A DNA stretch of 64,000 nt from NCBI GenBank assembly GCA_031292385.1, contig JARLHE010000037.1, positions 1 to 64,000 on the forward strand, written 5' to 3'. Below are positions 20,386 to 51,681 of this stretch, piece by piece. Numbering within the stretch: position 1 is the stretch's first letter; each line of letters opens with the position of its first letter. The stretch is from Oligoflexia bacterium. Its GTDB lineage: Bacteria > Bdellovibrionota > UBA1018. The notes beneath the pieces are model-generated. The model saw only the letters and a list, made by a program, of their open reading frames with translations, made no database searches and was not told the origin of the DNA. Made by a program: the position numbers and the translations under genes.

Positions 20386-20536
20386 TTTTAACACTGGCGG
20401 AACGCTCGGCGGGAAGTATGAGCGAGGAAGGTGTTTCGGCAAATTCCTATATAAGTTACAATAGAATAGACCACGATTTCACTATAAAAGGGGTCTGTCC
20501 ATCGTGCAAGAAGGGCTGTCAAAACGGATTCGTCCT

Positions 20537-35273: not shown

Positions 35274-35278
35274 TGAGC

Positions 35279-36636: not shown

Positions 36637-37247
36637 GTTTTCTCAGAGGGCCAATAAAATGCGAGTTTCGCGTTTCTTGCGACTTTAATGCCTTGAATCT
36701 TGCAGTTCGAGACGACGCAAAGACGGTCTTCGGTGGCGTGAAAAGCTTTCACGTCATGCGGGAATTCACCGGGAAGAATGACGAGGAGCCCTTGGTAAGG
36801 CTGGATTTCAATATTCTCCCGCCGGACGAGCTTTGGGTTCCAGAGCCGCAGCAGTCCTTGATTGGGTGACGTGTTGATGTAGTAGACCAGAGTAAAATTA
36901 ACGCCAAGGTGAATATGCGGATACAGAGGGCCCCGTCCCGGCGGCGGAACCAAAACATACGAGGTGTCTTCGTAATTGAGGTCACTCGCTATTACATCGG
37001 GTTTATAAAGACGCGCTATCGATAAAAAGGCCTCTTGGAAAAGATAGTGGAGCTTTTCGGTAGCCTCGTCGTTCCAATCCCAGAGTTTCCTGTCGAAACT
37101 CAGGTAATATTTGCGGGTCTCCTGCGCGTAGATTCGAGCCGAGAAAAAGAGCTGCGCATTCATGTCCTCGCAGTCGGTGACTTCGCCGAAGAGGCAGGTC
37201 TTCCCCCAATAGCGCTCGAATCGGTGGTTCAAGACAGGAGTTTTCAT
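36633..37247 (-). CDS. 2OG-Fe(II) oxygenase-like protein 6
   Basis: The 204-residue protein is first in the seven-gene minus operon. It has H111-x-H113 in YPHIHLGVNFTLVYY, distal H164 in LPGEFPHDV and R175 in EDRLCVVS. It belongs to the N/ExPH subgroup. Its start lies 30 bases from the GTG of a plus-strand gene, so a very short divergent promoter region serves both. Confidence 0.73.
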   Translation of the reverse strand: MKTPVLNHRFERYWGKTCLFGEVTDCEDMNAQLFFSARIYAQETRKYYLSFDRKLWDWNDEATEKLHYLFQEAFLSIARLYKPDVIASDLNYEDTSYVLVPPPGRGPLYPHIHLGVNFTLVYYINTSPNQGLLRLWNPKLVRRENIEIQPYQGLLVILPGEFPHDVKAFHATEDRLCVVSNCKIQGIKVARNAKLAFYWPSEKT

Positions 37248-37853: not shown

Positions 37854-38535
37854 AATTCAAAATCCGGGAGTTTTCGATCCTGAAGCGAGCAGCGTGACCA
37901 TCGATGCCGGCGGAGTGAGCGAAAATACCTATCATCCGGTGCGCTCGTTCCGGCATCCGCCCGTGCAGATGATCCTGGCCGCCTTGTACGATGCGTTTCC
38001 GGAGACTCTTCGCGAAGATATCCAAACCTGGGAGATGGTCGGGATGACGCTCGCCAACGGCGATAATTATCGGGCCGACACCATCAGCGTCTTCTATGCC
38101 GGGGGACCGGCGTCGGAAACGCTCGATCGGTTCGAGACTCCCCAGGGCAATTATGTCAATGCTCACACGATTAAATACGAGCTCGCCACGCGGAAGAAGT
38201 ATCTCAAAGTTTTTGACGGTGATTGGTGGAAGTACCCCTTGCCGCCATTGCCCGTGGGCGCCCAGTTCGGCGAGCATGGCGGCATTGGCCTTCACTATAA
38301 GAACGCCGTGCTCGAATCCCGGCGGGATATTTATTTTTTCCATCGGGACGAAAACGCGGTGATCGAATGGTGCCGCGGGCAAGCGGTCGATTACCCACTC
38401 TACGCCGGCGATCCCGGAGGCCCGATCTTACGTCTTTACGGCCTGGCTTTTGATCAGCAAACTCTGCGGGTCATCAAGTTGAAGCGTTACGTGCATCCTT
38501 GGTCGCTGGATATCCAGCACGGAAGGCGGATGTAG
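37843..38535 (+). CDS. ENTY-family protein, copy 2 (unrecognised)
   Basis: The 230-residue protein shares VSENTYHPVRS, WWKYPLPPLP, RRDIYFFHRDEN and VIKLKRYVHP with the protein at 35971-36636. These blocks fall in the same order and at similar spacing, so the two are paralogues of one uncharacterised family. It ends inside the convergent radical SAM gene with a 62-base overlap. Confidence 0.6.
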   Translation: MRNEIQNPGVFDPEASSVTIDAGGVSENTYHPVRSFRHPPVQMILAALYDAFPETLREDIQTWEMVGMTLANGDNYRADTISVFYAGGPASETLDRFETPQGNYVNAHTIKYELATRKKYLKVFDGDWWKYPLPPLPVGAQFGEHGGIGLHYKNAVLESRRDIYFFHRDENAVIEWCRGQAVDYPLYAGDPGGPILRLYGLAFDQQTLRVIKLKRYVHPWSLDIQHGRRM

Positions 38536-39547
38536 CCGCGTTCCACCGGTGGAGCGCTTCCCTGGGCGCGATGCAGTTTTTTGTGTCCAAATAGTCCTGA
38601 AGCTTGAAGAGGCCGTTTTTTGCGCAGGCGCCGGTAAAAGCGCAATCCACGCAATCGGTTTTTTGGTCCAGTCCGAGATAGGACTCCATCATGACGGTCT
38701 TTTCCCAGGTTTCGAATTCCTCGACTTTCCAGTCCTTCACCGGAATATGAAAATCCTCGCAAAAGCTCACAAGCGGGCTGTACAAAATGGGCGGCCAATA
38801 CCATTGGCCATTGCGATAGGCGTAGTGACGGCTGAGGCCGTCGCGCTGCGAGCCGTAGTAGAAGTTCAGCGCTTTCGCGTCTTCGCCGTTTACGGCCCGG
38901 TCGAAATTTCGATTGAGGCGTTCGATCGCCTGCAATAAGCGCCGTTCGGAGACATGGGCGCCGCGAGCGACGCTGAACGTGTGATAGGGCTTGCGTCCGA
39001 GAATCCTGAAAACCGAATCGCTGACTTGCTTGAGGTCGAACTCCTGTCCGACGAATTCGGCGTTCAACAAGGGGTGGGGGAATGGATCATGCGGAAAGCG
39101 GCAAAGGCCGAGGAATCTATCCCGTTTTCGGCGAAGCAGCTCGAGCCGTTCGGGATCGCCCAGGGCGAACGGATCGATCACGTGAAAAAAATTGATCCGA
39201 CGATCCGCCATGGCCGAACTCAAATAATCCGCCCATTCCTCGGCCGAATCATCGAGAAACGTGGTGTTGAGCAGCGTGGAGCGGAACAGGCCTTGGAGCT
39301 CTTTGAACCTTCTCTGCTCGAAAACCTCGCGCGTGTTGCTTGCGGTCATGAAGTCGGTGGGACCGATCTCGAAATGATCGAGCACATAACCTTGGCGGCT
39401 GAATTCCTTCATCAAGGCAATCGTGCGATCGAGATCTTCCGGTGCCGCCCAGCCGAGCTGGGCGGTTTTCTCCACTCCGCAACCGCCGCAAGCCCAGCGG
39501 CAGCCGTGCAAGAGATCGAGGATGAGGTCGAGGTGAAACGGGCTCAT
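38474..39547 (-). CDS. Radical SAM protein, GPTD family member 3
   Basis: This is the last gene of the twelve-gene minus operon. The 357-residue protein, counted from ATG 39547 (MSPFHLDL, overlapping the previous stop as ATGA), has C16-x3-C20-x2-C23 in GCRWACGGCGV, GPTD at 62-65 and the C-terminal C-x2-C-x5-C-x16-C-I-A-P set in DCVDCAFTGAC...NCIAP. An open frame extends upstream but lies within the preceding gene and is not a real extension. Confidence 0.8.
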   Translation of the reverse strand: MSPFHLDLILDLLHGCRWACGGCGVEKTAQLGWAAPEDLDRTIALMKEFSRQGYVLDHFEIGPTDFMTASNTREVFEQRRFKELQGLFRSTLLNTTFLDDSAEEWADYLSSAMADRRINFFHVIDPFALGDPERLELLRRKRDRFLGLCRFPHDPFPHPLLNAEFVGQEFDLKQVSDSVFRILGRKPYHTFSVARGAHVSERRLLQAIERLNRNFDRAVNGEDAKALNFYYGSQRDGLSRHYAYRNGQWYWPPILYSPLVSFCEDFHIPVKDWKVEEFETWEKTVMMESYLGLDQKTDCVDCAFTGACAKNGLFKLQDYLDTKNCIAPREALHRWNAATSAFRAGYPATKDARNAST

Positions 39548-40626
39548 GGGTTTGCTCTCATGCCCCGCCCGCGGAGGCGGTACCCGTCGAAGGCTCTGCG
39601 TGGCGCGATGCACTCGCGGGTCTCCAGCGCTTGCGCAAGCTGCAAAATCCCCTGTTGCGCGCATTGGGAAAGATGATCGCAACTCGCGCAATCTTCTTGC
39701 CGCTCGGCGACCGCGTATTGGGAAACCAGGCTTTTGGCCTCGAACTCATCGATGGCCCGCGCGGTCAGCTCGCCCGGCAATTTGAATCGCTCGTCGTAAT
39801 TGACGAAATGACCATAGAGAACGGGAGGCCAGTACCAGCTGCCGCTGCGCCAGGCAAAGGCTTTGTTCGTGGGCTTGAGCTCGTTTCCGTACTGAAAATG
39901 CGGATCACAGTCGACACGGTCGTAGACCCAGTGATTGAAAATCGAATTGAGCCAGTGGATATCCTTGAGGATCAGCGCCGAATGGGCCGTTAGATCGTCC
40001 TTACGCGAGCTCGAGATCGCGTGCCACGGACGGGATTCGAAGCTCTTCACCATTTCAGCGGTGATATTCAGGATCTCCCTGAGCAGGCTGTTGTCTTTTT
40101 TGGCGCTGTTCGGCTGGCTGTTGAGCACCGGCTCAAAACGCGTGGGCAGCTCGAGCGTGTTTTTGAAGATCTCGACTCGCGCGAGGATTTCGGCCATTAA
40201 CTCCGGATTGTCGATCTTGGTGGGTTCGATCACGAGGTAGAAATATATTTTTTTCCGTCCGAACAGATCCCGAAGCGTCTTGGCCCATGCTTGATAATCA
40301 TCCCGGTTGCCGGCCCCGGTCAAAGTGGTGGTGAAATAAAGGATGTTGAATTGGCGGCTGAGCTCGGCAAATCCAGGAGACGCGAGCAGCTCCTTGGTAT
40401 TCACTGCGGTGGTGAAGTCGGTGGGACCGACCTCGAGGTGATCGAGGATAAATCCCGAATCCTCTTTCAAAGCATGGATGTTTGAGATGATCTTGGAGAA
40501 TTCGGCTTCGGTCGGGATCGACTGACCGGATTTGGTCACGCCGCAGCCCCGGCATTGGCCCTGGCAACCGTTGAGCACGTCGAAAATCAGGTCGAAATAA
40601 GGAGGGCTCCAGGTATGAATCGCCAT
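39544..40626 (-). CDS. Radical SAM protein, GPTD family member 4
   Basis: The 360-residue protein has C21-x3-C25-x2-C28 in GCQGQCRGCGV, GPTD at 67-70 and DCASCDHLSQC with the fourth cysteine 16 residues later in ECIAP. It starts one base after the preceding gene ends. Sequence around the first cluster (GCGVTK) is closest to member 3, so these two may be a recent duplication. Confidence 0.8.
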   Translation of the reverse strand: MAIHTWSPPYFDLIFDVLNGCQGQCRGCGVTKSGQSIPTEAEFSKIISNIHALKEDSGFILDHLEVGPTDFTTAVNTKELLASPGFAELSRQFNILYFTTTLTGAGNRDDYQAWAKTLRDLFGRKKIYFYLVIEPTKIDNPELMAEILARVEIFKNTLELPTRFEPVLNSQPNSAKKDNSLLREILNITAEMVKSFESRPWHAISSSRKDDLTAHSALILKDIHWLNSIFNHWVYDRVDCDPHFQYGNELKPTNKAFAWRSGSWYWPPVLYGHFVNYDERFKLPGELTARAIDEFEAKSLVSQYAVAERQEDCASCDHLSQCAQQGILQLAQALETRECIAPRRAFDGYRLRGRGMRANP

Positions 40627-40627
40627 A

Positions 40628-41638
40628 TCAATAGTTGGGAGGGGCGGCCTCGGCGTATCGAAGACATTCGATCATTTTCGTTTTTGGCGCTACACAGCGG
40701 GCACGGTTAAGGATTTTCATATAGGCCGGGATGAAGCGCAGGCTGCACAGCTTTTGAAACTCGCAGTTCACGCACTCGATTCCTTCCTGGTAGTATTGGC
40801 TCACGAAGAGCTGGTTGAAGCTTTCGAGAAGCTCCAGGTAGCTGTTAAACCGGATTTCCATGCGGGGATCGGTCGCGTTCGCGAATTCGTAATAAAGATT
40901 CGGCGCCCAGTGCCACTTTCCCTCGTGCCATAGAATGTTGAGAAAGCTGTTCTCGCATTCGATATTGTTGGCGTTGAACATCCGGGTAACGAGCCCGATT
41001 TGATTGACGACGTCGAAAGCGCGATTGACGAGCGCCGGGTCGGTTTCGGTTCGGCGGGTGAAGTTGATCGCCAGCTCCAGCTCGAGATCGGGCATCGCCT
41101 GTGCGGCGTAGCGGTGGACCCGGCTTAAATCCTCTTTGAGAAACTCTTCGCTCGGTTCGACGTTGATTCCCGGCGCGAATTTGACGGTGTTCCTGCTCAG
41201 CTTCCGGATGAGCTCGATGTTTTCGCTGATTTTTCCGAGATAGGCCGGATGGTCGATTTGCTTGTGATTCAGCACGACATTGAAATGGATGTAGTCCTTT
41301 TTGTAGTGCCGGTTGAGGATCTCGATGATCTCGGTGATCCGCCCCTCGTTTTCAAGCAACGAGGTGTTAAACGCCAGATCCGTTTGGGGCGACTTCGCCA
41401 AGTCGATGAAGCGCGGATCCAGGAGAAAGCTCGTCGCGTTGTCGGCCGAGAACACGTCGGTCGGGCCGACCCGGATGCAAGAGACGCGGAGTCCGTCCGC
41501 CTCGCATTCGGCGATCACTTTTTTAATTTTCTCGAATTCGTTGAAACTTTGATTCGCGTTACGGACATAGCAACCCCGGCAGTACCAGCCGCAGCCGCTC
41601 AGGGTGTCCAATACGATGTTCAAGAACCTGGGTTTCAT
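40628..41638 (-). CDS. Radical SAM protein, GPTD family member 5
   Basis: The 336-residue protein has C16-x3-C20-x2-C23 in GCGWYCRGCYV, GPTD at 58-61 continued as VFSADN, and ECVNCEFQKLC with the fourth cysteine 16 residues on in RCVAP. The VFS/VFA continuation and the LIPA/FIPA segment in the C-terminal region link it most closely to member 7 at 50611. Its ATG overlaps the previous stop. Confidence 0.8.
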   Translation of the reverse strand: MKPRFLNIVLDTLSGCGWYCRGCYVRNANQSFNEFEKIKKVIAECEADGLRVSCIRVGPTDVFSADNATSFLLDPRFIDLAKSPQTDLAFNTSLLENEGRITEIIEILNRHYKKDYIHFNVVLNHKQIDHPAYLGKISENIELIRKLSRNTVKFAPGINVEPSEEFLKEDLSRVHRYAAQAMPDLELELAINFTRRTETDPALVNRAFDVVNQIGLVTRMFNANNIECENSFLNILWHEGKWHWAPNLYYEFANATDPRMEIRFNSYLELLESFNQLFVSQYYQEGIECVNCEFQKLCSLRFIPAYMKILNRARCVAPKTKMIECLRYAEAAPPNY

Positions 41639-42555
41639 CTCACCGCCGCCGTTTGATACCAGTCGAGGAGCTGCTTCCCGCCGTTGCAGGAGTGTTCAAG
41701 GGATTGAACGTCACGAAGATGCTCCGTCAAACAGTGTCCCAGATACTCGCACTCGTTGCAAAAGGGGTTTTTACCGGCCTTCTCTTTCTCCTCGTAGCAC
41801 CAATGCATGTATTCGGCGATGTCGCGTAAGGGACGGAAATATTCGCGATCCTGCGAGTCAAAATCGAGCACCGCGAGCTCTCCCCGCGGCGTGATGTAAA
41901 GGTGGTCGTTAGAGTAGGCGTTGTATACGCCCGATAGGCATTCTCGGATATTGACTTCGTTCATGAAGAGAAAGTTTTTCCGGACCGAGCTTTCGATCCA
42001 GCGCTTCACCCAGTCCTCCTGATCGCTCCACCGCATTGGAAGCTGGTTCCATTGGTTTTTGGAATAAGGCTTGATTTCCACGCTTTCGAGCCGTTCAAAG
42101 GTATTGAGAAGCTCGATGAGGGAGTCCGGATTTTTCTCGATGAGGCGCGGGGAGCTCAGCATCAACACCCGGAACGGCCGCTTCAGTTGTCGCATGTTTT
42201 CTATGACTTGCTCGTGCTTTTCGCGCGCGTCCCCGTCGTAACTGACCGCGAGCGTGATCCGCTCGGAGTTGAAAAAATCCCGGACCACGCTCAGGTTGGT
42301 GGTCACATCGACCGGGCCTTCGTAGAACTCCGAAACCGTGGAGAGGAGCTCTTCGAAATAAGGCGCTTTCAGCAATCCGATTTCCCCGCCATATAGGTCG
42401 ACCCCGGTCAGCGCCTTGTACGACGAAATCTCCCTGAGGCGATCGCGCAGCCGGTCGATGCCGATACGGGCGGGGTCGGCCAAGGCGGCCGTGCCCAGAT
42501 AACAAAAAGAACAGCGGAAATTGCAGTAGTAGCTGGGATTGATGCTTACGCGCAA
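41635..42555 (-). CDS. Radical SAM protein with C-terminal cysteine set
   Basis: The 306-residue protein starts at TTG 42555, which overlaps the previous stop and follows a GGGGG; this puts translation directly before the core (MRVSINPSYYCNFRC). The cluster motif is C11-x3-C15-x2-C18, and LYGGEIGLL near 54-62 is the GGE motif of the fold. The C-terminus has CNECEYLGHC and a later C, like the GPTD set but with 14 residues before the last cysteine. It lacks a GPTD motif. Confidence 0.75.
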   Translation of the reverse strand: MRVSINPSYYCNFRCSFCYLGTAALADPARIGIDRLRDRLREISSYKALTGVDLYGGEIGLLKAPYFEELLSTVSEFYEGPVDVTTNLSVVRDFFNSERITLAVSYDGDAREKHEQVIENMRQLKRPFRVLMLSSPRLIEKNPDSLIELLNTFERLESVEIKPYSKNQWNQLPMRWSDQEDWVKRWIESSVRKNFLFMNEVNIRECLSGVYNAYSNDHLYITPRGELAVLDFDSQDREYFRPLRDIAEYMHWCYEEKEKAGKNPFCNECEYLGHCLTEHLRDVQSLEHSCNGGKQLLDWYQTAAVR

Positions 42556-43559
42556 GGATCCCCCAAGCCCATTTCGTGAAGTTCCGGCTTGAGCGCCTGC
42601 ATGCCCTGGCAATGCGCTTCCACCTGGTCGGCGCGCTGGATGTCGCGAATGGTCTTGCGGCAGCCGTTGCAAAGCTCGAAAAATTCGCAGCTGAAGCAAA
42701 CCGGCTTCAGGGATTGAAGCTCAGGATCGGTACTGAGGGGGCGCGCGACCGCAAGCGAACCCATCTCGACATCCCATTCGATGGCATGTTCGCGGTCGTC
42801 CGCGATGCTTCCGCAGGAGTAGTAATCGCCTTCCGGATTGATCGCCCGGATATGCTCATCGCAATTTCTGGCCCTGGGGCACGAGAGCGACTGAGCGTCT
42901 TGCGCTTTGGCCAGCAGCTGCTTGGTGTTGAATTCCCAAGGCGCGAGTCCCTCTTTCCAGACCTGATGATAGATTCGGTACATCTCGGATTGCGAAAAAT
43001 GCCGTCCCTGCCGTCCTGACGCCATGGCGGCGTTGAGCTTGCATTCGACATCCAGTTTTTTCGCGAGCCGCACGTTCTCGAGCGCGTAGGGCGCGGATTC
43101 CTCGTCCATGACCGAGATGAAGTCGGGACGATAGCCTACTTCCCGAAGCATGAGGTCCGACGTTTCGAGAAATAAATCAACCGTGAATACCTGGGTTGGC
43201 GTGACTCTTCTGGAGCTTCCGTACTGGAAGCTCGTGATGACGCCGACGCGTGGATGGCGAAAGAGATCCCGCCATTTCGCCGGGTTTTTGTAAAACGACC
43301 AGAGGTTTGTCGTGAGGCCCAGATTTGCCGGATAGCCGTGCTTTTCGACGTGCTCCAGGATCGCGAAATAATACTCGGGCTTCATCATGAGCGGATCGCC
43401 GCCGTTGACGACGATCGATCGGGTGCGCGGAAAACGCTTCAGAAAATCGAAAATCCGTTGAAGGTCCAGCGTGGTTTTGGATGATTCGGCGATCTCGTTG
43501 CTCGAGCAAAACGTACACGAAAAATTGCAGGCTTGCGTCGGCTTGATGATCAATTCCAT
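42546..43559 (-). CDS. Radical SAM protein with SPASM-like domain
   Basis: The 337-residue protein begins MELIIKPTQACNFSC with C11-x3-C15-x2-C18 and a GGDP motif in VVNGGDPLM. Its C-terminal region has CPRARNC, then CGS and CFSCEFFELCNGC followed by a final C, the cysteine pattern of SPASM domains that bind extra clusters in peptide-modifying enzymes. I chose ATG 43559, directly before the core and four bases after the preceding stop. Confidence 0.8.
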   Translation of the reverse strand: MELIIKPTQACNFSCTFCSSNEIAESSKTTLDLQRIFDFLKRFPRTRSIVVNGGDPLMMKPEYYFAILEHVEKHGYPANLGLTTNLWSFYKNPAKWRDLFRHPRVGVITSFQYGSSRRVTPTQVFTVDLFLETSDLMLREVGYRPDFISVMDEESAPYALENVRLAKKLDVECKLNAAMASGRQGRHFSQSEMYRIYHQVWKEGLAPWEFNTKQLLAKAQDAQSLSCPRARNCDEHIRAINPEGDYYSCGSIADDREHAIEWDVEMGSLAVARPLSTDPELQSLKPVCFSCEFFELCNGCRKTIRDIQRADQVEAHCQGMQALKPELHEMGLGDPCA

Positions 43560-43563
43560 GTCG

Positions 43564-44634
43564 TTACCACTTCTTGTACTGATCCTGATATTGCTGAAGC
43601 GGCGCAATGCAGCCGTCGTATCCGATCACGTCGAGGGTGTGCAGGATCTGGCGCTCCACGCACTTGCCGACATGCCCGCAATCACGGCAGCGTGGCTTTT
43701 CCGGCAGGCGGTTGAACTGGCTCACGATGAGTTCTTGCTCGCAGCGTTCGAACTCATCCACGCTCCACTCGCGCAGGGGGACTTTGAGCCCTTCGTCGAA
43801 ATTGACCAGACAGGCGACCAGAAACGGAACATAATAAAATTCCCCGTTGCGGTACGTGTAGCGCCGGTTGAGAAAATCATAGGCGGTGTAGCTGTCCTCG
43901 CCCAGCGCCTCGAGCCGGCTCGTCTGCTCGAGATCGTTGTCTTGCGGAACGTAAGTGGCGATCACCTCGTTGAGCCAATCGATGCTTTTAATGAAGTCGT
44001 CTTTGTATTTTCTCATCTCGGGCTTCCGGGCGAAGCTCATGACGTAGTCTTGATTGGCGCTGAAGTGATCACGGTACCATTTCGACGTGTTCACGTAGTC
44101 GCGGTGCGCGTTCATCACGCGCGGATCCGGGTACTCATACCAGTTGAAGATCACGAACTGGCGGAGGCTTCGCGTCTTGAGTCGGGAGATGAAGCGGTTC
44201 TTTTTCTCGACGATTCGCTGCATGTACTTCTCGTCCAAGACCTTCATCGGGTTCATGACGACGTAAAAATACAGGCTGGTATCGGCATAATCCCGGTTGA
44301 TGACGTCAATGATCTCTTCCTGGTGTTCATCAGGCTCGGCCAGAAAAGTCGAAGTCAGGTACCAGAAATCGAATTTGTGAATGAGCGCCCGAAGCCCGGG
44401 ATCTCGTAAAATATCGAGTGTGTTTCGCGCCACCATGAAGTCGGTGGGGGTGATGTTCAGGAAATTCAGGCGGTAGCCGCGCGATTTGAACTCATCGGCC
44501 AGGGCGTTGAGGCGCGCCAGGTCGCCGCCCGAGAAGCCGTCTTGCCCTTTCGTGGCGACGTGACATCCGCCGCACTGCCATTTGCAGTCATTCAAAAGCT
44601 CTAGGTTGAGATCCAGCAGCAGCGGCTTATCCAT
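43564..44634 (-). CDS. Radical SAM protein, GPTD family member 6 (TPTD variant)
   Basis: The 356-residue protein has C17-x3-C21-x2-C24 in DCKWQCGGCHV, TPTD at 62-65 in place of GPTD, and RCRDCGHVGKC with the fourth cysteine 16 residues on in GCIAP. It starts eight bases inside the previous gene. The Gly-to-Thr change is the only break in the GPTD block among the seven members. Confidence 0.8.
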   Translation of the reverse strand: MDKPLLLDLNLELLNDCKWQCGGCHVATKGQDGFSGGDLARLNALADEFKSRGYRLNFLNITPTDFMVARNTLDILRDPGLRALIHKFDFWYLTSTFLAEPDEHQEEIIDVINRDYADTSLYFYVVMNPMKVLDEKYMQRIVEKKNRFISRLKTRSLRQFVIFNWYEYPDPRVMNAHRDYVNTSKWYRDHFSANQDYVMSFARKPEMRKYKDDFIKSIDWLNEVIATYVPQDNDLEQTSRLEALGEDSYTAYDFLNRRYTYRNGEFYYVPFLVACLVNFDEGLKVPLREWSVDEFERCEQELIVSQFNRLPEKPRCRDCGHVGKCVERQILHTLDVIGYDGCIAPLQQYQDQYKKW

Positions 44635-45673
44635 GCAGGGCCTCGTCGAAAAACTCCTTGATGAAACACGATGCCTTCTGCTCGCGCCGGGCCCGATCCG
44701 CCTGCACGAAGCAGTGGAGGCCGCAACGATTGAAGTGAGAGCAGCTCAGGCACCCCTGCTCGTCGATGAACTTCAAGGCCATCTCGCTGATGGAAAAGCG
44801 GTCGAGCGGGGTTTTGAAGTCGGAGGGGCGGTACGGGAAATAGCGGCAAGACGAAATCGTATCGTTCGCGAGCACGGTCAGGCGGTTCAGCGAACAGCAC
44901 TTCACCTCGTTGAATTCCTGGTTCAGCCAGCGGCGGATCGGCTCGACGTTCGGGTAATTTTTCGCCAGAAACTTCCAGGCGCGGAGGTTATCCTCGTCGG
45001 ACGGCGAGAACAGATCCTGCTGTTTGAGATCGGGGATGTAATATTCGAAAACCACCGGAACCCGCTGGTAAAGCCAGTCAAAGAGAGAATCGCGCTGTTC
45101 GATCATCTTGTCGATGCTGAGCCGGTGAAGAACGACTCCAACCAGCCGGATACGCTCGCGCAAGCGCTCGACATTCGCTTTGAAGAGCTCGCGCTGCTGG
45201 GCATTCCAGTTGCGCCCCACGAAATCGAAGCTGGTCGCGAGCTGCGCGGGACCGAGCTCGGCGCTGATCCGGTCCAAAAGGCTCTCCACGCGCCCGTATT
45301 TCTCGAAAATCAGGTTCGTCGTGAACATGAAGCGAGCGGTTTTTCCGTGAGCGTCGCAATCCTCGCGGAGGCGGCGGGCCAGCGCGAAGAGGTTTTCGAA
45401 GTGCTCGTCCGAGAAATGGTCCTGGAAAATCTCGCCGCCCATCAGGTTGAATTTGAAGTCCTTGCCCGGATGGTCGCGCATATAGTCTTTGACCAGATCC
45501 GCCTTGTTCATGAGGCTTTTCAGGCTGGCTTGCTCGAGCGAGGCGCGGTGGTCCTGCGAGCAGAAGGCGCATCGCAGATTGCAGTTCTCGAAGAGCTGCA
45601 TTTCCACTTCGACAAGATCGTATTCTTTCTCTTTCAGGAGATGGGCTAAAATTCGATCTTTCTGCGTGAGCAT
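44627..45673 (-). CDS. Radical SAM/SPASM-like protein, paired with its neighbour
   Basis: The 348-residue protein has C31-x3-C35-x2-C38 in NCNLRCAFCSQ, an LMGGEIF motif near 77 and a C-terminal GCLSCSHFNRCGLHC set followed by KASC. It is a paralogue of the next upstream gene (45677-46810): both share MGGE(I/L)F, FDF.GR.N, a PSD.E block and the C-terminal cysteines. The tandem copies may act in succession or as a heterodimer. Confidence 0.8.
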   Translation of the reverse strand: MLTQKDRILAHLLKEKEYDLVEVEMQLFENCNLRCAFCSQDHRASLEQASLKSLMNKADLVKDYMRDHPGKDFKFNLMGGEIFQDHFSDEHFENLFALARRLREDCDAHGKTARFMFTTNLIFEKYGRVESLLDRISAELGPAQLATSFDFVGRNWNAQQRELFKANVERLRERIRLVGVVLHRLSIDKMIEQRDSLFDWLYQRVPVVFEYYIPDLKQQDLFSPSDEDNLRAWKFLAKNYPNVEPIRRWLNQEFNEVKCCSLNRLTVLANDTISSCRYFPYRPSDFKTPLDRFSISEMALKFIDEQGCLSCSHFNRCGLHCFVQADRARREQKASCFIKEFFDEALHG

Positions 45674-45676
45674 GGC

Positions 45677-46810
45677 TTACACACTCATTCCGTCGATTTT
45701 CTGATAAAGTTTCCGGAACAGGCAGGTGTCCATCTTGGGCCGCTTATCGTAATCGTGCAGCAGGAAGCACCCGAGCCCGCAGTTATCGAAGTACTCGCAT
45801 TGCAGGCATCCCATGTTCTCCACGAAGCGCCCCTGCATGTTCCCGTTGTCGAAGTTATAGGGCGTTCCGCCGAAATCGCCGAGCGTGCGCTTGTCGACCA
45901 GAATGCGGCAACGGCCCACCGTCCCGTCCGGCTGCACGATTTGATCGGCCCGGCAGGACATTTTTTGGGGTCTTAGGTCGAACATGTCCTGAACCGGGCC
46001 GCTTTTCGGGAAATGCTCGATGAGCCAGCTGAAGGCTTCGAAAAGCTCTTGGTCGGACGGGCTGTAGCTTTCGGCGTTGTGTTGGGGCGAGAAATAATCG
46101 AAGTAGCAATAGAGCCCTCGATTATAAAGGCTTTTGAGATAGTCGATGGTCGCGCTTTCTTCCGACCTTTTGCCGAGCATGATCTCGACATTTGGCTTCG
46201 TGAGCACGGTCGAGATCATCTTGATCGAGGGGAAGAACGTTTCCAGGTTTCTTTTGAAGACCTCGAGCGTCGCTTTGTTGAATCGGCCGGAAAAGTCGTA
46301 GCTCACGCAGATCGGGACCTCGTGGCCGTGGCGCTTGAGCTGTTCCAGTAGATTCGTTACGCGCTCGGTTTTTGAAAAGATCAGGTTCGTCACGAAGTGA
46401 AAATGCGCGTATTTCCCTCGTGCACGGATTCCTTCGGATACTTTGATCACGAATTCGAAGTATTTTTCGAAGACCTCGTCGGGCACTTCGTCCATGAACA
46501 GCTCGCCGCCCATCATATTTACCTGATAGCCGAGGTACTGCGAGCCCAGCCGGTCGACCTGCTTCAGCAGGCTATGTACCTTGCCTAAGATCCCGTCGAT
46601 CCCCGTCCAATCGTCGTGCTTTTGGTAGCAGAACCCGCACTGCAGGTTGCATCTTTCGAAGAAATTGATGAAAAACTCGCCCTCGTCGTTCATCTTCCGG
46701 CGCAAAGCGACTTCGGCGAACGAGCGGAAGCCGAGCTCCCGCTCATCGGGCTTCTTTTCATCCGTCCATCTTCGAGCGCTGAAATCATCGGGTCGGGTTC
46801 GTTTCGTCAT
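45677..46810 (-). CDS. Radical SAM/SPASM-like protein, paired with its neighbour
   Basis: The 377-residue protein has C54-x3-C58-x2-C61 in RCNLQCGFCYQ, MMGGELF near 90 and C-terminal GCLQCEYFDNCGLGC followed by DTC. An N-terminal segment of about 45 residues rich in charged residues precedes the core and could bind a peptide. Its ATG overlaps the previous stop, and three bases separate it from its paralogue downstream. Confidence 0.8.
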   Translation of the reverse strand: MTKRTRPDDFSARRWTDEKKPDERELGFRSFAEVALRRKMNDEGEFFINFFERCNLQCGFCYQKHDDWTGIDGILGKVHSLLKQVDRLGSQYLGYQVNMMGGELFMDEVPDEVFEKYFEFVIKVSEGIRARGKYAHFHFVTNLIFSKTERVTNLLEQLKRHGHEVPICVSYDFSGRFNKATLEVFKRNLETFFPSIKMISTVLTKPNVEIMLGKRSEESATIDYLKSLYNRGLYCYFDYFSPQHNAESYSPSDQELFEAFSWLIEHFPKSGPVQDMFDLRPQKMSCRADQIVQPDGTVGRCRILVDKRTLGDFGGTPYNFDNGNMQGRFVENMGCLQCEYFDNCGLGCFLLHDYDKRPKMDTCLFRKLYQKIDGMSV

Positions 46811-47547
46811 GAATCCATCCAGATCAGTTGCTTCAACACGTCATTTCGCCGCAGGCGATAGCAGTTATAGAAATAGGAGATCAAAAAAGGATTCACATCG
46901 CGGATTCGGTGAAAAATCTCCGAGCCTTGCGGAATCGCCATATCCAGGTCCAGGAGCTCCTGCAGGCCCATTTGCGGCCGGCTCGCGTAGTTCAGCTGAA
47001 ACCGGACGACGGGATTATGTCCGCTCGGGTCGCGCAGCCAGCCGATTTCGAAGAAGTAGCGATGTTTGAGCTTGAGGAGCTCGATCTTTTGGCCTGGGTC
47101 CACGGAGCTTTGCCAGGAAGGGTTCAGCGTCCAAACCCATTCGGGATCGATCACCTGCATCCTCACGTCGGGGGTGTCGACGTTTCCGTTCAGGAAGACG
47201 TTCTGCAAGTAGATGCGCCGAAGCTCCTGAAGCTCGTCCTCGATCATGGTTTGATCCAGGACGTTTTTGATGTGCGTCTCGAAGGCCTCGCGACCGGGCC
47301 ACCGCGGGTCGGCCAAAAAGCTTGAAAGCTGGAACTCCAGACGCGGCTCGGCGGGAATTTTGATGCCGGAGATCGGGGTTTCCCAATAGTCGTCAAACGC
47401 GGCTTGGCTGTCGAGCGCGGGTAGGTGCTCATTGAGCAGGTAAAGCCGGTACTGTTGGTTCAAGCAGGCGAGGTGGTAGGCCGTCGATTTTGATAAGCCC
47501 GGAAAGCCGGTTTTTAGGCTTTGAACGAATGCCTGATCAAACTTCAA
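46807..47547 (-). CDS. Unrecognised 246-residue protein
   Basis: The protein is soluble with no signal peptide or cysteine cluster. It has aromatic-rich blocks such as DPEWVWTLNPSW (about 124-135) and HRYFFEIGWLRDPSG. It overlaps its upstream neighbour by 11 bases and the downstream radical SAM gene by four, so it is a full member of the precursor operon. It might deliver the peptide to the enzymes or be a catalytic component of a new type; neither can be read from the sequence. Confidence 0.65.
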   Translation of the reverse strand: MKFDQAFVQSLKTGFPGLSKSTAYHLACLNQQYRLYLLNEHLPALDSQAAFDDYWETPISGIKIPAEPRLEFQLSSFLADPRWPGREAFETHIKNVLDQTMIEDELQELRRIYLQNVFLNGNVDTPDVRMQVIDPEWVWTLNPSWQSSVDPGQKIELLKLKHRYFFEIGWLRDPSGHNPVVRFQLNYASRPQMGLQELLDLDMAIPQGSEIFHRIRDVNPFLISYFYNCYRLRRNDVLKQLIWMDS

Positions 47548-48289
47548 GCCGCAAATCCTCTGGCCTGACTCGTTTTTCCATCAGGGCGACGAGCATTCCG
47601 AGCAGGCTGTTATTGGGATTGTAGAAAAAGTGGAAAAGATTCTTTCCGCGGAACATCTGCTCCCAGAACTGCCGCTTGAAAAAAGCCGGGGCGGATTTCG
47701 GAGCGGTCGAAAAATACGACTCGAAGAAGCCCGGGACGTAAAACAAGTCGACCACGTTCTGTCCGACGAAAAAAGGATCGTCGATGACCTCGGCCCCCTC
47801 TTGAGGGGCCTCTCCGAAAGCGCTGCGGTAGGCCTGGGTCGTGGTGATCGCGTAGAGCGGAAGGCTGTCGCAGAAGCGCTGCCAATTGCCGATCAAAGCC
47901 GGGTTTTTTTCGATGAACAGTTTGAGCTCTTCTTTGTTGAAAATAGTCGATTTGAACTCCAGGTCCGTTCGGTCCTGCTTCGAGAGAATCAGGGCGTCGG
48001 CTACCGAGAGCGTGAAGCTCGGCACGGAGAACATGTTTCGGCTCTCCATATAGCACTTCAACATCTCGAATTTTTCGTCGAGCGAAACATCGGGCGTAAA
48101 GCGAATCTCGCAAGGAATGTCGAGATTGGACAGGTAAATCAGCAACGACTTTCCTTTGAGCTGGCTCTCGGCGTAATTGATGACGAAAATCTTGGACTTA
48201 TCGAGAAAAAATTCTCGCATCACGTCCATTGAAAATGGCGCCATGACTTCCCGGACTTTGGAAGGATCGGTTTTCGATAAATCGAACAT
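47537..48289 (-). CDS. Unrecognised 250-residue protein next to the peptide gene
   Basis: The gene starts three bases after the candidate precursor stop. The product is soluble, mixed alpha/beta in character (MDVMREFFLDKSKIFVINYAES early on) and lacks motifs I know. Position immediately after the peptide suggests a leader-binding, chaperone or immunity role, but this is position-based inference only. It is not a radical SAM or oxygenase by motif. Confidence 0.65.
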   Translation of the reverse strand: MFDLSKTDPSKVREVMAPFSMDVMREFFLDKSKIFVINYAESQLKGKSLLIYLSNLDIPCEIRFTPDVSLDEKFEMLKCYMESRNMFSVPSFTLSVADALILSKQDRTDLEFKSTIFNKEELKLFIEKNPALIGNWQRFCDSLPLYAITTTQAYRSAFGEAPQEGAEVIDDPFFVGQNVVDLFYVPGFFESYFSTAPKSAPAFFKRQFWEQMFRGKNLFHFFYNPNNSLLGMLVALMEKRVRPEDLRLEV

Positions 48290-48292
48290 ATC

Positions 48293-48607
48293 TTATCTCC
48301 TCGACCGGCTCTTGGGAGGCGGAGTGTAGCAATTCGAATGGCAGATGAAATTTGAGTTGCAAACGAAACCCGTTATTGCCGCCGGGGCGTCGTTTTGCTC
48401 CGGCAGGCGGACTAGAGGTGAAAGGGGCGAGCCGCCCTGATGCGCCTGTCCCGCATAAGCCGCGAAGATCGCCGCAAAGCGATGTGCTGCCTTCAAAGAT
48501 TCTTGGGGAATATTGATCTCGTCCGCAACCGGCGCTTTCGCGCCACCGGTCAAATCGCTTACCAGTGTTTGCCACGGCGTAAGCTGATTCCTCTCTGGCT
48601 CGTTCAT
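48293..48607 (-). CDS. Candidate RiPP precursor peptide, 104 residues, Cys-rich tail
   Basis: The first 79 residues are a soluble, mildly amphipathic leader with no cysteine. The tail from G80 reads FVCNSNFICHSNCYTPPP and then KSRSRR, with all three cysteines at 83, 89 and 93 and two near-repeats of (V/I)-C-(N/H)-S-N. A good ribosome-binding site (AAGGA) lies about eight bases before ATG 48607. The gene follows the SPASM radical SAM gene by 15 bases and precedes two orphan genes and eight more radical SAM genes. Small, odd C-terminal tail and this context are the marks of a ribosomal peptide modified after translation. No homologue is known to me. Confidence 0.65.
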   Translation of the reverse strand: MNEPERNQLTPWQTLVSDLTGGAKAPVADEINIPQESLKAAHRFAAIFAAYAGQAHQGGSPLSPLVRLPEQNDAPAAITGFVCNSNFICHSNCYTPPPKSRSRR

Positions 48608-48622
48608 ACGGACTTTCCTTTT

Positions 48623-49738
48623 CTACTCGGTTCCAAAAAAATCACTTAGAACAGTTTTATATTCGTCGATATTTCTCTGTTCTTTGAGGTAGGTCATCAG
48701 CTTTTTAGGCGCGGCACAGATGTCTCCCTGCCATGCCAGCTGATTGCAGTCTCCGTTACAGACGTCGTAGACGGGGCAAGTGTAGCAAATCGGATTTCGA
48801 TTGGATTCGCATTGGATGTTTTTGATGCGCCCCGGGGAAAAAAGCAATTTGTGAATGCTGTCATCCAAAGTTCCGAAATGGTTATCGGGCGCGTGATTGG
48901 GGCAGCCGCCGATCGTACCGTCGGCATTGATGGTAAAGATCTTCTGCTCGCAGGCGCGGCAACGGCAGCCGCTATGCGTCGAATAAGTCAGGGAAGTCAA
49001 AATACTGTTCAAAAACAGGTTCTGCGGTCCCCATTCCCAAACCTTGTATTCAACCGTCTGCTGGTACATCCGGAAAAACCACTCATCCAGCTCCTGATTT
49101 GACGGCGTGATTGCGGGATTTAGCCGGGCATTTCCATTTGGAGTGATGCGCTCCAGGTGTAAATACGATGCGCCGACCTCCGCTGCCTTCCGAATGAGCT
49201 CAATGGGTTCGTTTTTGATGATGTCGCGGCCCAGGCTCACCATCATCGTCACGGTGAAGCCGAGCTCTTGGGTGAGCGTTTTTACGTTCTTGGTCCAAAG
49301 CTCTTCTTGCTTGGGGTTAGCAAAACGAATCCCGCGATCCCAGCTGGTGGCGATGTTTTTCTGGAAGCACTCGGTCATGAAATCGATCTTTTCTTGATCC
49401 AAGTTGTATACGAGATTTGTTGTGGTGCTCCAGGTGAGATTGGGCCAGAGGTCTTTGGTGTAAGTCCAAACCTCTCTCATCTTGGAAACCGGCGCCAGAA
49501 AGGGCTCGCCGCCATGAAAAACAATCTGGGCCTGCCGGAAGTGCGGGATCGCCGATTTCAGGCGGTGAAGCCAGTCGATGGTCTTAGTCGTGTCAAAAAT
49601 GTTCTTCTTGCCGGATGATCCGCTCGTGAAGCAATGAGCGCAGTTCAGCTGACAAGTGTCCGTTGTTTTCAGGTAGATCATCAGATCCGTCATCGGAGAG
49701 CGGGAATATGGAACTGATGGGTTCGACTGAGCGCTCAT
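48623..49738 (-). CDS. Radical SAM/SPASM maturase next to the candidate precursor
   Basis: The 371-residue protein has C29-x3-C33-x2-C36 in TCQLNCAHCFT, GGEP in VFHGGEPFL, and a SPASM domain: CRCRAC, GGCPNHAPD and CYTCPVYDVCNGDC. This pattern is typical of enzymes that modify ribosomal peptides. It is the first gene of the twelve-gene operon, divergent from the aminoacyl-tRNA-synthetase-like gene. I chose ATG 49738; the frame stays open upstream to 50548 but that part lies opposite the divergent gene and is not conserved-looking. Confidence 0.85.
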   Translation of the reverse strand: MSAQSNPSVPYSRSPMTDLMIYLKTTDTCQLNCAHCFTSGSSGKKNIFDTTKTIDWLHRLKSAIPHFRQAQIVFHGGEPFLAPVSKMREVWTYTKDLWPNLTWSTTTNLVYNLDQEKIDFMTECFQKNIATSWDRGIRFANPKQEELWTKNVKTLTQELGFTVTMMVSLGRDIIKNEPIELIRKAAEVGASYLHLERITPNGNARLNPAITPSNQELDEWFFRMYQQTVEYKVWEWGPQNLFLNSILTSLTYSTHSGCRCRACEQKIFTINADGTIGGCPNHAPDNHFGTLDDSIHKLLFSPGRIKNIQCESNRNPICYTCPVYDVCNGDCNQLAWQGDICAAPKKLMTYLKEQRNIDEYKTVLSDFFGTE

Positions 49739-49828: not shown

Positions 49829-50614
49829 ATGAGCCTGACAGAGACGCGGCGGGATTCGATCATCCATTCGACGAAATCGGCGGGAAACAACCCTCCCGTT
49901 TATTTTTGGCCAGAGGGAAGTACGCTTCCCGTCTATTTTTGGAATGAAGAAGATCTGGAGATCCGCGAAAAAATTATCGCGCATATCACGGCCGAGACGC
50001 GCGCGTTGATCCAAGGCCTTCATTCGAGAATGAAAATTCGTCGAATCGAGTATCCGTCGATCGTGCCTTTTTCGGACCTGCGCGACCGGCCCCACGAGGC
50101 GTGGCGCCTTGCTGGAACCGATCTGGCCTTGAGCACGGGTGAAGGCGAGGGCGGTTGCGTCCCGTTTCTGCGGGAAGTGATGAAAGAATGGACGCCGGAA
50201 ACGCTTCCGGTTTCTTATCAATATCAGAGTAAAAACTTCCGGTCGGAAAACCCGCGCTATACGGGGCCGTTTCGCTCGCTCGAGTTCTGGCAGCTCGATT
50301 GGGATTGTTACTGGGTGGCCGATCAAGTTCGATTCGCTCCCGAGGAAACCCAGGTTTTTTCCACAATTCTTGAGCCCATCATCGGACCGACTTACATGAA
50401 GCCGGAGCCGGAGCAGACGAAGGATGGGGCCTGGAGGCTCAACTTCGACATCCTCTCCGATGTGACGGATCCCGCCGTGGAAGTGGCTGGATACAGTACG
50501 CGCAGCCAGCAGCCTCCTTTCGTCGAGTGGAAGGGGCCAGAGCTTCACGGTTTCAACATCAGTTATGGGATCGACCGCCTGGTGACCGCTTATAAGCTTC
50601 TGAATCGTCGATGA
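49829..50614 (+). CDS. Stand-alone class II aminoacyl-tRNA-synthetase-like protein
   Basis: The 261-residue protein has a class II motif 2-like segment, KNFRSENPRYTGPFR at about 135-149 followed by SLEFWQLD, and a motif 3-like GFNISYGIDRL (241-251), with R138, E140 and R250 in place to bind ATP. The motif 2 form resembles glycyl/prolyl-type synthetases. At this length there is no room for an anticodon-binding domain. Such paralogues can load amino acids on carrier proteins or peptides. The ATG at 49829 has GGGG about nine bases before it. The stop overlaps the next radical SAM gene as ATGA. Confidence 0.65.
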   Translation: MSLTETRRDSIIHSTKSAGNNPPVYFWPEGSTLPVYFWNEEDLEIREKIIAHITAETRALIQGLHSRMKIRRIEYPSIVPFSDLRDRPHEAWRLAGTDLALSTGEGEGGCVPFLREVMKEWTPETLPVSYQYQSKNFRSENPRYTGPFRSLEFWQLDWDCYWVADQVRFAPEETQVFSTILEPIIGPTYMKPEPEQTKDGAWRLNFDILSDVTDPAVEVAGYSTRSQQPPFVEWKGPELHGFNISYGIDRLVTAYKLLNRR

Positions 50615-51681
50615 ATTACGAAACCCAGGGCGTTCGAATCGTTATCGACTGTTTGCGCGATTGCGACTGGAAATGCCCAGGATGCTTCGTCGAGCGCTCG
50701 ATGAAAAAAGAGTTCGACGCTCATGACAAGATCATCTCGCTTTACGAAGAATGCAAAGCGCGGGGAACGGTCGAGCCCTATTCGTTGACGATCGGTCCCA
50801 CCGATGTCTTCGCTTCGACCAATAAAATCGCGTTTTTCGGCAATCCGAAAACACGCAAGATGTGCGGCTATGTTCCCGACCTGGCGATGACCACGACGCT
50901 CCTGGGCGAGGACGGGCGGTACGACGAGCTTTTGGAGATTTTGGACGATTACACGAACAAGCTCGTACTCGTGGTTCCTTTGAATCACCGTCAGATGCGG
51001 AATTCCAAATACGTCGAGGTCCTGCTGAAGCGGGGCGAGTACATCCGCAAAAGAACCCGCAGGGCGGTTTATTTCGATCCAATCTTCAATATCACGGATA
51101 ATAAAGAGTTCATGGATCTGGATGTCGACTATTGCATCAAGTTCCTCGACCGACTCCAGCCGAACGCCGACGTGGAGTTCGCTTTCGGTTTTACCCGGCA
51201 AACCGGCGTCAATAACCGCCTCGTCGCGGAACATCTGCAGGCTTTCGCGCGTTTCATCGACTCGAACCATCGTCAAGGAATCATGTTCCCGCAGTTCAGC
51301 GAGGCGACCCTGAAGCGGGACTGGAAGAACATTTATCTTTCGCTGCTTTGGCGCGAAGGCGAGTGGCATTGGTTGTCGATGATGTACGCCGATTTCCTGA
51401 TCAACTACGCCGAGACGACGAAAATCCAGTTCAACAACCTGGATGATCTCCAGAATATCTTCCTGCAGAAGGTGAATAGCCAGTACTCGCTCCAGCAGGA
51501 ATGCAATGAATGCGAGTTTTTCAAAAACTGCTCATGGAGCTTGATTCCCGCCTTCATGGACGTGTTAGGCGAAAAAAATTGCATCATTCCCCGCGAGCCC
51601 TACGTCGATTTCGTGAGGTATCACAAGTCGGCCTCGGCGATCGGCTTGTACGCCAAATCCGGCGAGCCGTTCTGGGATTGA
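50611..51681 (+). CDS. Radical SAM protein, GPTD family member 7
   Basis: The 356-residue protein has C18-x3-C22-x2-C25 in DCDWKCPGCFV, GPTD at 62-65 continued as VFAST, and ECNECEFFKNC with the fourth cysteine 16 residues on in NCIIP. It is most like member 5. It is translationally coupled to the synthetase-like gene (ATGA overlap), making a two-gene unit in which an amino-acid-activating protein and a radical enzyme are made together. Confidence 0.82.
   Translation: MNYETQGVRIVIDCLRDCDWKCPGCFVERSMKKEFDAHDKIISLYEECKARGTVEPYSLTIGPTDVFASTNKIAFFGNPKTRKMCGYVPDLAMTTTLLGEDGRYDELLEILDDYTNKLVLVVPLNHRQMRNSKYVEVLLKRGEYIRKRTRRAVYFDPIFNITDNKEFMDLDVDYCIKFLDRLQPNADVEFAFGFTRQTGVNNRLVAEHLQAFARFIDSNHRQGIMFPQFSEATLKRDWKNIYLSLLWREGEWHWLSMMYADFLINYAETTKIQFNNLDDLQNIFLQKVNSQYSLQQECNECEFFKNCSWSLIPAFMDVLGEKNCIIPREPYVDFVRYHKSASAIGLYAKSGEPFWD

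What the first reader, a model, noticed from the sequence alone, without database searches (positions are those of the whole stretch)
38474..49738. Twelve-gene operon with a candidate precursor peptide and nine radical SAM enzymes
The sequence shows a SPASM radical SAM gene, a 104-residue peptide gene with a Cys-rich tail, two orphan genes and eight more radical SAM genes in a single file, nearly all overlapping or within a few bases. Known radical SAM peptide systems usually have one or two such enzymes. Nine in one operon, and 14 across 34 kb, is far outside what I know. I infer a ribosomal peptide pathway with many radical-chemistry steps.
Basis: partly seen in the sequence, partly recalled or inferred. 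Interest (0 to 1): 0.95.

Follow-up and report, generated by a model that had tools for sequence, protein, structure and literature searches.

The report
Radical-SAM array for a fibre-protein tail
A bacterial chromosome carries nine radical-SAM enzyme genes in one file with a small gene whose cysteine-rich end resembles the near-invariant end (Cys-His-x-Ser repeats, then Arg-x-Arg-Arg) of a protein encoded beside the same kinds of enzymes in giant phages and in likely relatives of the predatory Bdellovibrio; the enzymes are predicted to chemically cross-link that tail, which likely sits on a phage tail or a cell-surface fibre.

Summary
In detail: twelve tightly packed genes, nine with CxxxCxxC and C-terminal cluster cysteines, and 14 CxxxCxxC proteins in 33 kb. 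It is not an orphan system. "Orphan" 47537-48289 (A) is phage family phrog_20767. In six jumbo phages, 80 fetched IMG/VR contigs and 16 other genomes of the window's phylum (likely Bdellovibrionota) A marks a radical SAM gene cassette, in viruses usually ordered radical SAM, X, A, more radical SAM. X is the counterpart of the 104-residue peptide. The 68 distinct X from the first locus set share one tail, CHxSCHx[SNA]CHx[SNA]R[GS]RR. Bacterial variants (CHGNFPPPCHGSRGRR, CHTNVPTPPPCHASRGRR) bridge to the window's CHSNCYTPPPKSRSRR. No X-bearing viral contig that I checked lacked radical SAM genes. A phage X is modelled as a folded domain with a floppy tail; X lies near tail genes, and in Atu_ph07 at the edge of a virion cluster defined by mass spectrometry. 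Most bacterial copies lie within 13 kb of an S74 phage-fibre chaperone, mostly on prepilins. I infer that the array cross-links the tail, likely at His-x-[Ser/Asn], of a protein that stays on a fibre or phage tail. The chemistry is untested. The window's X matches by tail and position only, not by its body.

The parts
48623..49738 (-). radical SAM/SPASM enzyme, type spA; gene directly before X in most phage loci too
   Evidence: CxxxCxxC plus full SPASM cysteines; spA profile hits in 89 of 89 loci; gene order
48293..48607 (-). X: 104-residue predicted substrate, tail VCNSNFICHSNCYTPPPKSRSRR
   Evidence: Only 1 of 515 window ORFs ends in [SNA]R[GS]RR; best of 68 window proteins against the bacterial tail profile, E 0.002; with the mixed profile E 0.11; body does not match
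47537..48289 (-). A: conserved partner, phrog_20767, predicted fold without a PDB match; possibly a substrate-handling protein
   Evidence: phrog_20767 E 5e-57; phages, IMG/VR, 17 of 368 genomes of the phylum; model pLDDT 89.8, no fold match
46807..47547 (-). B: orphan at the place of phage family C (340-420 aa); homology to C unproven
   Evidence: No phage match; weak match to C profile, E 0.005 in 68 proteins with filters off
45677..46810 (-). radical SAM/SPASM, type spB
   Evidence: Same 7 of 50,697 phage records as A
44627..45673 (-). radical SAM/SPASM, second spB paralogue
   Evidence: phmmer to 45677 E 3e-47
43564..44634 (-). radical SAM, GPTD family
   Evidence: relatives in 3 Burkholderia phage records
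42546..43607 (-). radical SAM/SPASM, type spC; true start probably at the internal ATG before ELIIKP
   Evidence: PF04055 6e-9; spC in 87 of 89 loci
41635..42699 (-). radical SAM, type spD; true start probably near the CNFRCSFC motif
   Evidence: spD in 75 of 89 loci; start inferred from relatives
40628..41638 (-). radical SAM, GPTD family
39544..40626 (-). radical SAM, GPTD family
38474..39691 (-). radical SAM, GPTD family; true start probably at MSPFHLD
50611..51681 (+). tenth nearby radical SAM, GPTD family, divergent to the operon
23109..24149 (+). radical SAM, GPTD family, in a second cassette part
24064..24729 (+). 2OG-Fe(II) oxygenase-like (same paralogue family as 34602, 35279, 36633, 26180)
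   Evidence: phmmer; not scanned itself; paralogues match PF13759
24726..25175 (+). phrog_20737 protein, a usual member of the phage cassette
   Evidence: E 5.7e-30; found in 69 of 89 loci
25150..26196 (+). radical SAM, GPTD family
26180..26779 (+). 2OG-Fe(II) oxygenase-like
   Evidence: PF13759 2e-4, below Pfam's cut-off; phrog_81 4e-4
20504..23054 (+). three prepilin-like genes (20504-21448, 21433-22281, 22278-23054), possible fibre; no S74 chaperone here
   Evidence: PF07963 above cut-off on 22278 and just below it on 21433; match to N-termini of cassette-linked prepilins, E 1e-8 to 1e-10, a general kind of sequence
34602..37247 (-). 2OG-Fe(II) oxygenase-like genes 34602, 35279, 36633 and gene 35971 (paralogue of 37843)
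   Evidence: PF13759 above cut-off on 34602, 35279, 36633

Best explanation
This operon is a bacterial relative of a gene cassette that also occurs in jumbo phages and in other members of its phylum, in which a row of radical SAM enzymes likely modifies the Cys/His-rich C-terminal tail of the protein encoded beside them (X). Shown by sequence: the recurring gene order, the near-invariant tail ending in R[GS]RR, and the linkage of tail, protein A and radical SAM genes wherever checked. Inferred: A, and perhaps the X body, holds X so that the enzymes reach the tail. The repeating unit H-x-[Ser/Asn] is then cross-linked, most likely from the His ring to the beta carbon of Ser/Asn, with Cys thioethers possible. 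2OG-Fe/JmjC-type enzymes may add hydroxyl groups. The modified tail stays attached and is displayed at a phage tail or a pilus-like fibre as a rigid or target-binding tip. In this genome the tail is longer and more varied (Cys, Asn, His, Tyr, Pro, Lys), which may be why the array has grown to nine.
For: A = phrog_20767, E 5e-57. A and spB occur in the same 7 of 50,697 phage records. Recurring order spA-X-A-...-spB-...-spC-spD in most viral loci; variants of it in bacterial ones. Of 73 distinct ORFs between spA and A, 68 share the tail; the 5 others are spurious frames in L005 or extra genes next to a tail-bearing X. Tail present in 4 of 4 annotated phages fetched; the [SNA]R[GS]RR end in X of 15 of 16 other bacterial loci. 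12 of 1,662 ORFs in the bacterial stretches end so and all 12 are X. Bridging tails with PPP. One phage X model: body mostly above pLDDT 90, last ten residues 52. In Atu_ph07 the structural cluster CDS 170-215, marked from ESI-MS/MS data, has gp170, which is X, as its edge (passages of PMC6102473). S74 domain within 3.7-12.9 kb of A in 13 of 16 bacterial loci, 12 of them with a prepilin-like start, S74 confirmed by Pfam in two scanned. Among the nearest named enzymes of spA and spC are the cross-linking maturases DynA, DarE, YhhB and AmcB.
Against: No modification has been seen; the chemistry is argued from motif and distant enzyme similarity only, every equivalog score being far below its cut-off, and matches to sulfatase maturases, PapB and others are of similar strength. 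The window's X body matches no X body, its tail reaches only E 0.11 with the mixed profile, and it has one H-x-[SN] where phages have three. gp170 of Atu_ph07 is not named in the text as a detected protein (supplements not readable). The window's prepilins lack S74 and lie more than 15 kb from the operon. A has no fold relative that would reveal its role. The S74 and 200-aa profiles were built from seven and six of the loci that they then matched.
Confidence: 0.66

Rival explanations
1. A classical RiPP: the tail is cut off after modification and released as a small molecule.
For: Short gene with Cys-rich C-terminus beside radical SAM/SPASM genes; the window's X is only 104 residues, and 44 of 176 other X are 111-150 residues.
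Against: Most X elsewhere are larger (128 of 176 over 150 residues), one modelled as a folded body. I recognised no separate peptidase or exporter as a constant member in the maps or among the neighbours scanned, apart from the self-cleaving S74 chaperone; not every neighbour was scanned. The setting is phage tail genes or prepilin genes.
Confidence: 0.12
2. The tail is an unmodified metal-binding site (like metal-bound phage spike tips, recalled) and the enzymes act on another protein, such as the large tail protein or the prepilin-S74 protein.
For: Three invariant Cys-His pairs; large virion genes directly upstream in phages.
Against: X lies between the enzyme genes and was found with them wherever checked. 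Tails with only one or two Cys but kept H-x-[SN] units exist, which fits enzyme substrates better than a fixed metal site.
Confidence: 0.15
3. The chemistry is Cys-based (sactipeptide or ranthipeptide thioethers), His and Ser being spectators.
For: All 68 tails of the first set have three Cys, and the window's tail has three Cys but one His; weak matches to PapB-type ranthipeptide maturases.
Against: The G167 tail has one Cys but four H-x-S units, and G106 has two Cys and four H-x-[SN].
Confidence: 0.3
4. The window's copy is decaying: X has lost its body and most of its motif, so this operon no longer does the ancestral job.
For: Body not matched and tail divergent; X has no relative in the protein set; no other genome of the order has A (1 of 55, own only).
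Against: All nine enzymes are open with intact motifs. A is 54-65% identical to four metagenome proteins that form a well-supported clade with it. The enzyme set has grown rather than shrunk.
Confidence: 0.1

Closest known systems
Radical SAM clusters in giant phages (332-Vera, FLC6, RP12/RP31, S13; PMC12390700, PMC8066314, PMC5468394, PMC11898562, passages seen)
   Same: Several radical SAM genes (with 2OG-Fe oxygenases and a cupin in FLC6 and S13); in 332-Vera they lie in a structural gene cluster. FLC6 and SURPRISE13 (S13) hold A.
   Different: The passages only list the genes; one calls eight of them 'highly unusual'. They name no substrate, tail motif or bacterial counterpart. I did not test 332-Vera or RP12 for X.
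His-Xaa-Ser system (HxsA, HxsB, HxsC, HxsD; TIGR03976-03979)
   Same: Works like: His-x-Ser repeats and a pair of radical SAM enzymes (partly recalled; PMC9062424, passage). One bacterial X ends WCHSSHSSHSSHSSRGRR; spA and spC give weak HxsB/HxsC matches.
   Different: All scores far below the curated cut-offs; protein A, the Cys-His pairs and the R[GS]RR end are not part of it as recalled.
Dynobactin/darobactin and three-residue cyclophane maturases (DynA, DarE, YhhB, AmcB)
   Same: Among the nearest named radical SAM/SPASM enzymes of spA and spC.
   Different: Far below cut-offs; those act on short precursors that are exported (recalled).
Mosaic adhesive trimer fibres of Bdellovibrio (PMC10769870, passages seen)
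   Same: S74 chaperone, phage-fibre-like surface proteins in a predator of the same wider group.
   Different: Those are large beta-helical fibres; here S74 is fused to prepilins, and the text holds neither 'radical SAM' nor 'pilin'.

Membership tests
Phage/bacterial phrog_20767 radical SAM cassette (defined here) | Protein A (phrog_20767) | tested here: met
   E 5.3e-57 over residues 3-246
Phage/bacterial phrog_20767 radical SAM cassette (defined here) | Gene order spA-X-A-...-spB-...-spC-spD | tested here: met
   Window order against maps
Phage/bacterial phrog_20767 radical SAM cassette (defined here) | X with CH-repeat tail and [SNA]R[GS]RR end | tested here: inconclusive
   End and Cys spacing fit, E 0.002 in 68 proteins with the bacterial tail profile, 0.11 with the mixed profile; only one H-x-[SN]; body unmatched
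Phage/bacterial phrog_20767 radical SAM cassette (defined here) | phrog_20737 protein nearby | tested here: met
   24726-25175, E 5.7e-30, about 13 kb from the operon's end
His-Xaa-Ser system | HxsA (TIGR03979) above cut-off | tested here: not met
   Window X: no match. G167 X: 16 bits, cut-off 121.65
His-Xaa-Ser system | HxsB (TIGR03978) and HxsC (TIGR03977) above cut-off | tested here: not met
   30.6 of 370 bits (48623) and 32.1 of 267.9 bits (42546)
His-Xaa-Ser system | HxsD | tested here: inconclusive
   A of G167 had no NCBIfam match; the window's A and B were not scanned against NCBIfam
Radical SAM-modified RiPP | Ribosomal substrate with conserved motif beside radical SAM/SPASM genes | tested here: met
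   modification itself not observed
Radical SAM-modified RiPP | Leader cleavage and export genes | tested here: inconclusive
   None recognised among the cassette neighbours that were scanned, apart from the self-cleaving S74 domain; not every neighbour was scanned
Radical SAM-modified RiPP | Modified residues in the mature product | not testable with these tools
   Needs mass spectrometry

The most novel reading that the evidence does not exclude
Jumbo phages and relatives of predatory bacteria share a new kind of structural maturation: an assembly line of four to nine radical SAM enzymes turns the (C-H-x-S)n-R-G-R-R tail of a fibre or tail protein into a cross-linked tip used to engage or pierce other bacteria.
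Probability: 0.45. Interest if true: 0.96.

Novelty: new variant of a known kind. Interest (0 to 1): 0.9.

Why it matters
If true, radical SAM chemistry, known for peptide natural products and cofactors, is also used to build the working ends of viral tails and bacterial surface fibres. It would explain why some giant phages carry otherwise unexplained runs of radical SAM genes inside structural clusters. It gives a precise, testable substrate: a 17-residue tail at an exact C-terminus. The same parts in phages and in likely relatives of predators of Gram-negative cells would point to a shared device for attacking such cells.

Tried and rejected
Pfam and NCBIfam on the operon enzymes give only general radical SAM or far-below-cut-off matches. 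The peptide has no homologue beyond itself; its body matches neither long nor short X bodies. Orphan B has no phage match and only a weak link to family C. PDB sequence search with the X family: best E 0.19, an engineered protein. Fold search: A, best E 0.076; X in PDB, best E 1.3; X in BFVD, four matches at E <= 0.001, uncharacterised or unnamed, one a 296-residue Atu_ph07 protein, the length of its X. No PF04984 tail sheath in the own genome or five related records (the control rang in 3 of 14 genomes), and no phage structural gene recognised by me in the window, so I think a prophage or tailocin in the window unlikely. L006 and L007 (filed as Rickettsiales and Euryarchaeota) fall inside the viral clade; I treat them as viral contigs and do not count them as cellular. 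The HXS system was rejected as a family but kept as an analogue. Literature: searches listed no paper that, by title, start of abstract or the passages I opened, describes the tail or the cassette as such; subscription papers are not held. For every paper named I saw only passages or listings, never the whole text.


Full report
What is there. The operon 49738-38474 (minus strand) holds, in order: a radical SAM/SPASM gene (48623-49738), a 104-codon gene (X), A (47537-48289), B (46807-47547) and eight radical SAM genes, with gaps or overlaps of a few bases in most cases. All nine enzymes have CxxxCxxC and auxiliary-cluster cysteines near the end. Four of the nine belong to one paralogous family, called GPTD here after a shared motif; three more members lie at 23109, 25150 and 50611. 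Pfam and NCBIfam do not see the four. Profile comparison aligns the family to the cassette types spD, spB, spA and spC with probabilities of 92, 88, 66 and 18%. With 53933 and 54953, 14 CxxxCxxC proteins lie in 33 kb. The same genome has 22 PF04055 matches at E <= 0.01, seven of them in this window.

Protein A opens the case. Its relatives in 5.77 billion proteins are seven metagenome proteins. A scan of GTDB contigs found five loci, a scan of IMG/VR 90, of which 80 were kept. PHROGs files A as phrog_20767 (E 5e-57; all 8 members of the first alignment match it). In annotated phages it is in 7 of 50,697 records (six phages: Atu_ph07 twice, Phosso, FLC6, FLC8, SURPRISE13, pPa_SNUABM_DT01), the same seven that hold spB. 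In the four that I opened it lies in runs of radical SAM genes, with annotated 2OG-Fe oxygenases in two, near virion genes.

The same cassette. Maps of 87 loci (two of 89 gave no A by the gene caller) give, in most viral ones: large structural gene, small gene, fibre-like gene, a gene of about 150-175 codons, spA, X, A, a gene of 340-420 codons (family C), spB, then spC, spD, the phrog_20737 gene and often a 2OG-Fe oxygenase. The window has spA-X-A-B-spB-spB-GPTD-spC-spD-GPTD-GPTD-GPTD. Its phrog_20737 gene (24726-25175) and oxygenases stand in other groups, at 24-27 kb and 31-37 kb.

The tail. Of 73 distinct ORFs between spA and A, 68 end in CHxSCHx[SNA]CHx[SNA]R[GS]RR; the other five are spurious frames in L005 or extra genes next to a tail-bearing X. 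X of 4 of 4 annotated phages fetched, and of L005 and L008, has it too. A DNA pattern for the tail gave 120 viral stretches (limit reached). In 119 of them it is the true end of an ORF, and 113 of those hold a radical SAM gene in the stretch. The remaining contigs, six plus L181, have 4-8 radical SAM matches each. Thus no counter-example to linkage was found in this capped set. X length varies: of 176 distinct X with the strict tail, 128 are over 150 residues, 44 are 111-150 and 4 are shorter (median 188). Twenty-three loci carry more than one X gene.

The window's X. It ends VCNSNFICHSNCYTPPPKSRSRR. It is the only one of 515 window ORFs that ends in [SNA]R[GS]RR. In the stretches L230-L255 from other genomes of the phylum 12 of 1,662 ORFs do, and all 12 are X. 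Bacterial variants close the gap: CHGNFPPPCHGSRGRR, CHTNVPTPPPCHASRGRR, CHSNHCSHSNHGSRGRR and CHSSHSSHSSHSSRGRR. Against a profile of bacterial tails the window's X is first of 68 proteins (E 0.002), but with a mixed phage-bacterial profile it reaches only E 0.11. Its body (the first 80 or so residues) matches no X body, long or short. I therefore file it as X by tail and position, not by body.

Bacterial relatives. In the window's phylum 17 of 368 genomes have A, the own one included; in its order none of 54 others does. One copy lies in a single-contig genome of 4.15 Mb (G164), and flanks of the three named ones hold ordinary chromosomal genes (my reading of the sequences). X with the [SNA]R[GS]RR end is in 15 of 16 of these loci; in the sixteenth, G226, the contig starts just upstream of A. 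In a tree of A the window's protein joins four metagenome proteins (100/100), next to six bacterial loci (86/86); most viral rows form their own clade (half of the IMG/VR rows used, several long branches, some bacterial rows elsewhere). A therefore looks old in both worlds rather than freshly moved.

A fibre in both worlds. Upstream genes in the phages scanned match tail, tail-fibre, virion or unnamed families of PHROGs. In Atu_ph07 the published text places most virion proteins found by ESI-MS/MS in three clusters, one of them CDS 170-215. The record's gp170 is X, gp169 is A, and gp171, gp168 and gp165 are radical SAM genes; the paper's numbering agrees with the record for tail sheath gp140 and lysozyme gp141. 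gp170 itself is not named in the text. In bacteria, 13 of 16 loci carry, 3.7-12.9 kb from A, a protein with a C-terminal S74 chaperone-like domain, 12 of them with a prepilin-like start, and 13 of 16 a conserved protein of about 200 residues. These profiles were built from seven and six of the same loci. Pfam confirms S74 in the two scanned (1.4e-17, 8e-13). The three loci without S74 are contigs of 9-12 kb. The window has three prepilin-like genes at 20504-23054 that match the same N-terminal profile but lack S74. S74 fibres serve prey recognition in Bdellovibrio (PMC10769870, passages).

What X and A look like. A phage X (L009, 190 residues) is modelled as a folded domain (mean pLDDT 87.6) with a floppy tail (last block 52). 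It resembles only uncharacterised or unnamed phage proteins at E <= 0.001 and nothing in the PDB. A is modelled with pLDDT 89.8 and matches nothing in the PDB. So this X is predicted to be a folded protein with a tail, not a leader with a core; the shorter X class was not modelled.

How it most likely works. The unit that survives in nearly all tails is H-x-[Ser/Asn]: three in most phage X (128 of 176 distinct tails have Ser at all three places), four in G106 and G167, two in G145 and G164, one in the window. H-x-S is the motif of the His-Xaa-Ser system, and an aromatic residue followed two places later by Ser or Asn is the pattern of three-residue cyclophane formers (recalled). Among the nearest named relatives of spA and spC are DynA, DarE, YhhB and AmcB, all far below cut-offs, with others of similar strength. 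I predict His-to-beta-carbon cross-links, with Cys thioethers as the main chemical rival. That the tail is the substrate follows from its invariance, its place between the enzyme genes and its linkage with them; it has not been shown. That the product stays on a fibre or phage tail follows from the predicted folded body and the gene setting.

Verdict. A real, conserved system, undescribed as far as the searches went. By enzyme grammar it is a new variant of radical SAM peptide modification; by use, on a phage tail or surface-fibre protein, it would be new.

Noticed in passing
L244:1019-2110 (G145), L003:6216-7253, G164, G106, G110, G166, G250: Prepilins with a C-terminal Peptidase_S74 (phage-fibre chaperone) domain, near a conserved protein of about 200 residues and the cassette, in likely Bdellovibrionota.
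   Followed up: partly
L093:2523-3286; 23 loci carry more than one X: Two X genes in tandem (126 and 127 residues in L093), each with the full tail.
   Followed up: no
window 27492-29879 and 32291-34591: Two long paralogues (795 and 766 aa, phmmer E 2e-230) with an N-terminal GT4 glycosyltransferase domain and an unnamed C-terminal half, between the oxygenase groups.
   Followed up: no
window 35971-36636 and 37843-38535: Paralogous pair of about 225 aa without a Pfam function; relatives lie beside the cassette in Sinorhizobium phage Phosso (L088) and in G250.
   Followed up: no
window 53933-54949 and 54953-56251: Two radical SAM proteins with the CxxxCxxC motif far from the N-terminus, next to a gene that looks like an ABC exporter membrane part (53069-53833, by eye); probably a separate surface-polysaccharide cluster.
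   Followed up: no
window 26776-27411 and L253:7818-8264: Small Cys-rich (zinc-ribbon-like) proteins that look similar by eye, beside the cassette in the window and in G167.
   Followed up: no
L006 and L007: GTDB contigs filed as Rickettsiales and Euryarchaeota whose A falls inside the viral clade; likely phage contigs in wrong bins.
   Followed up: partly
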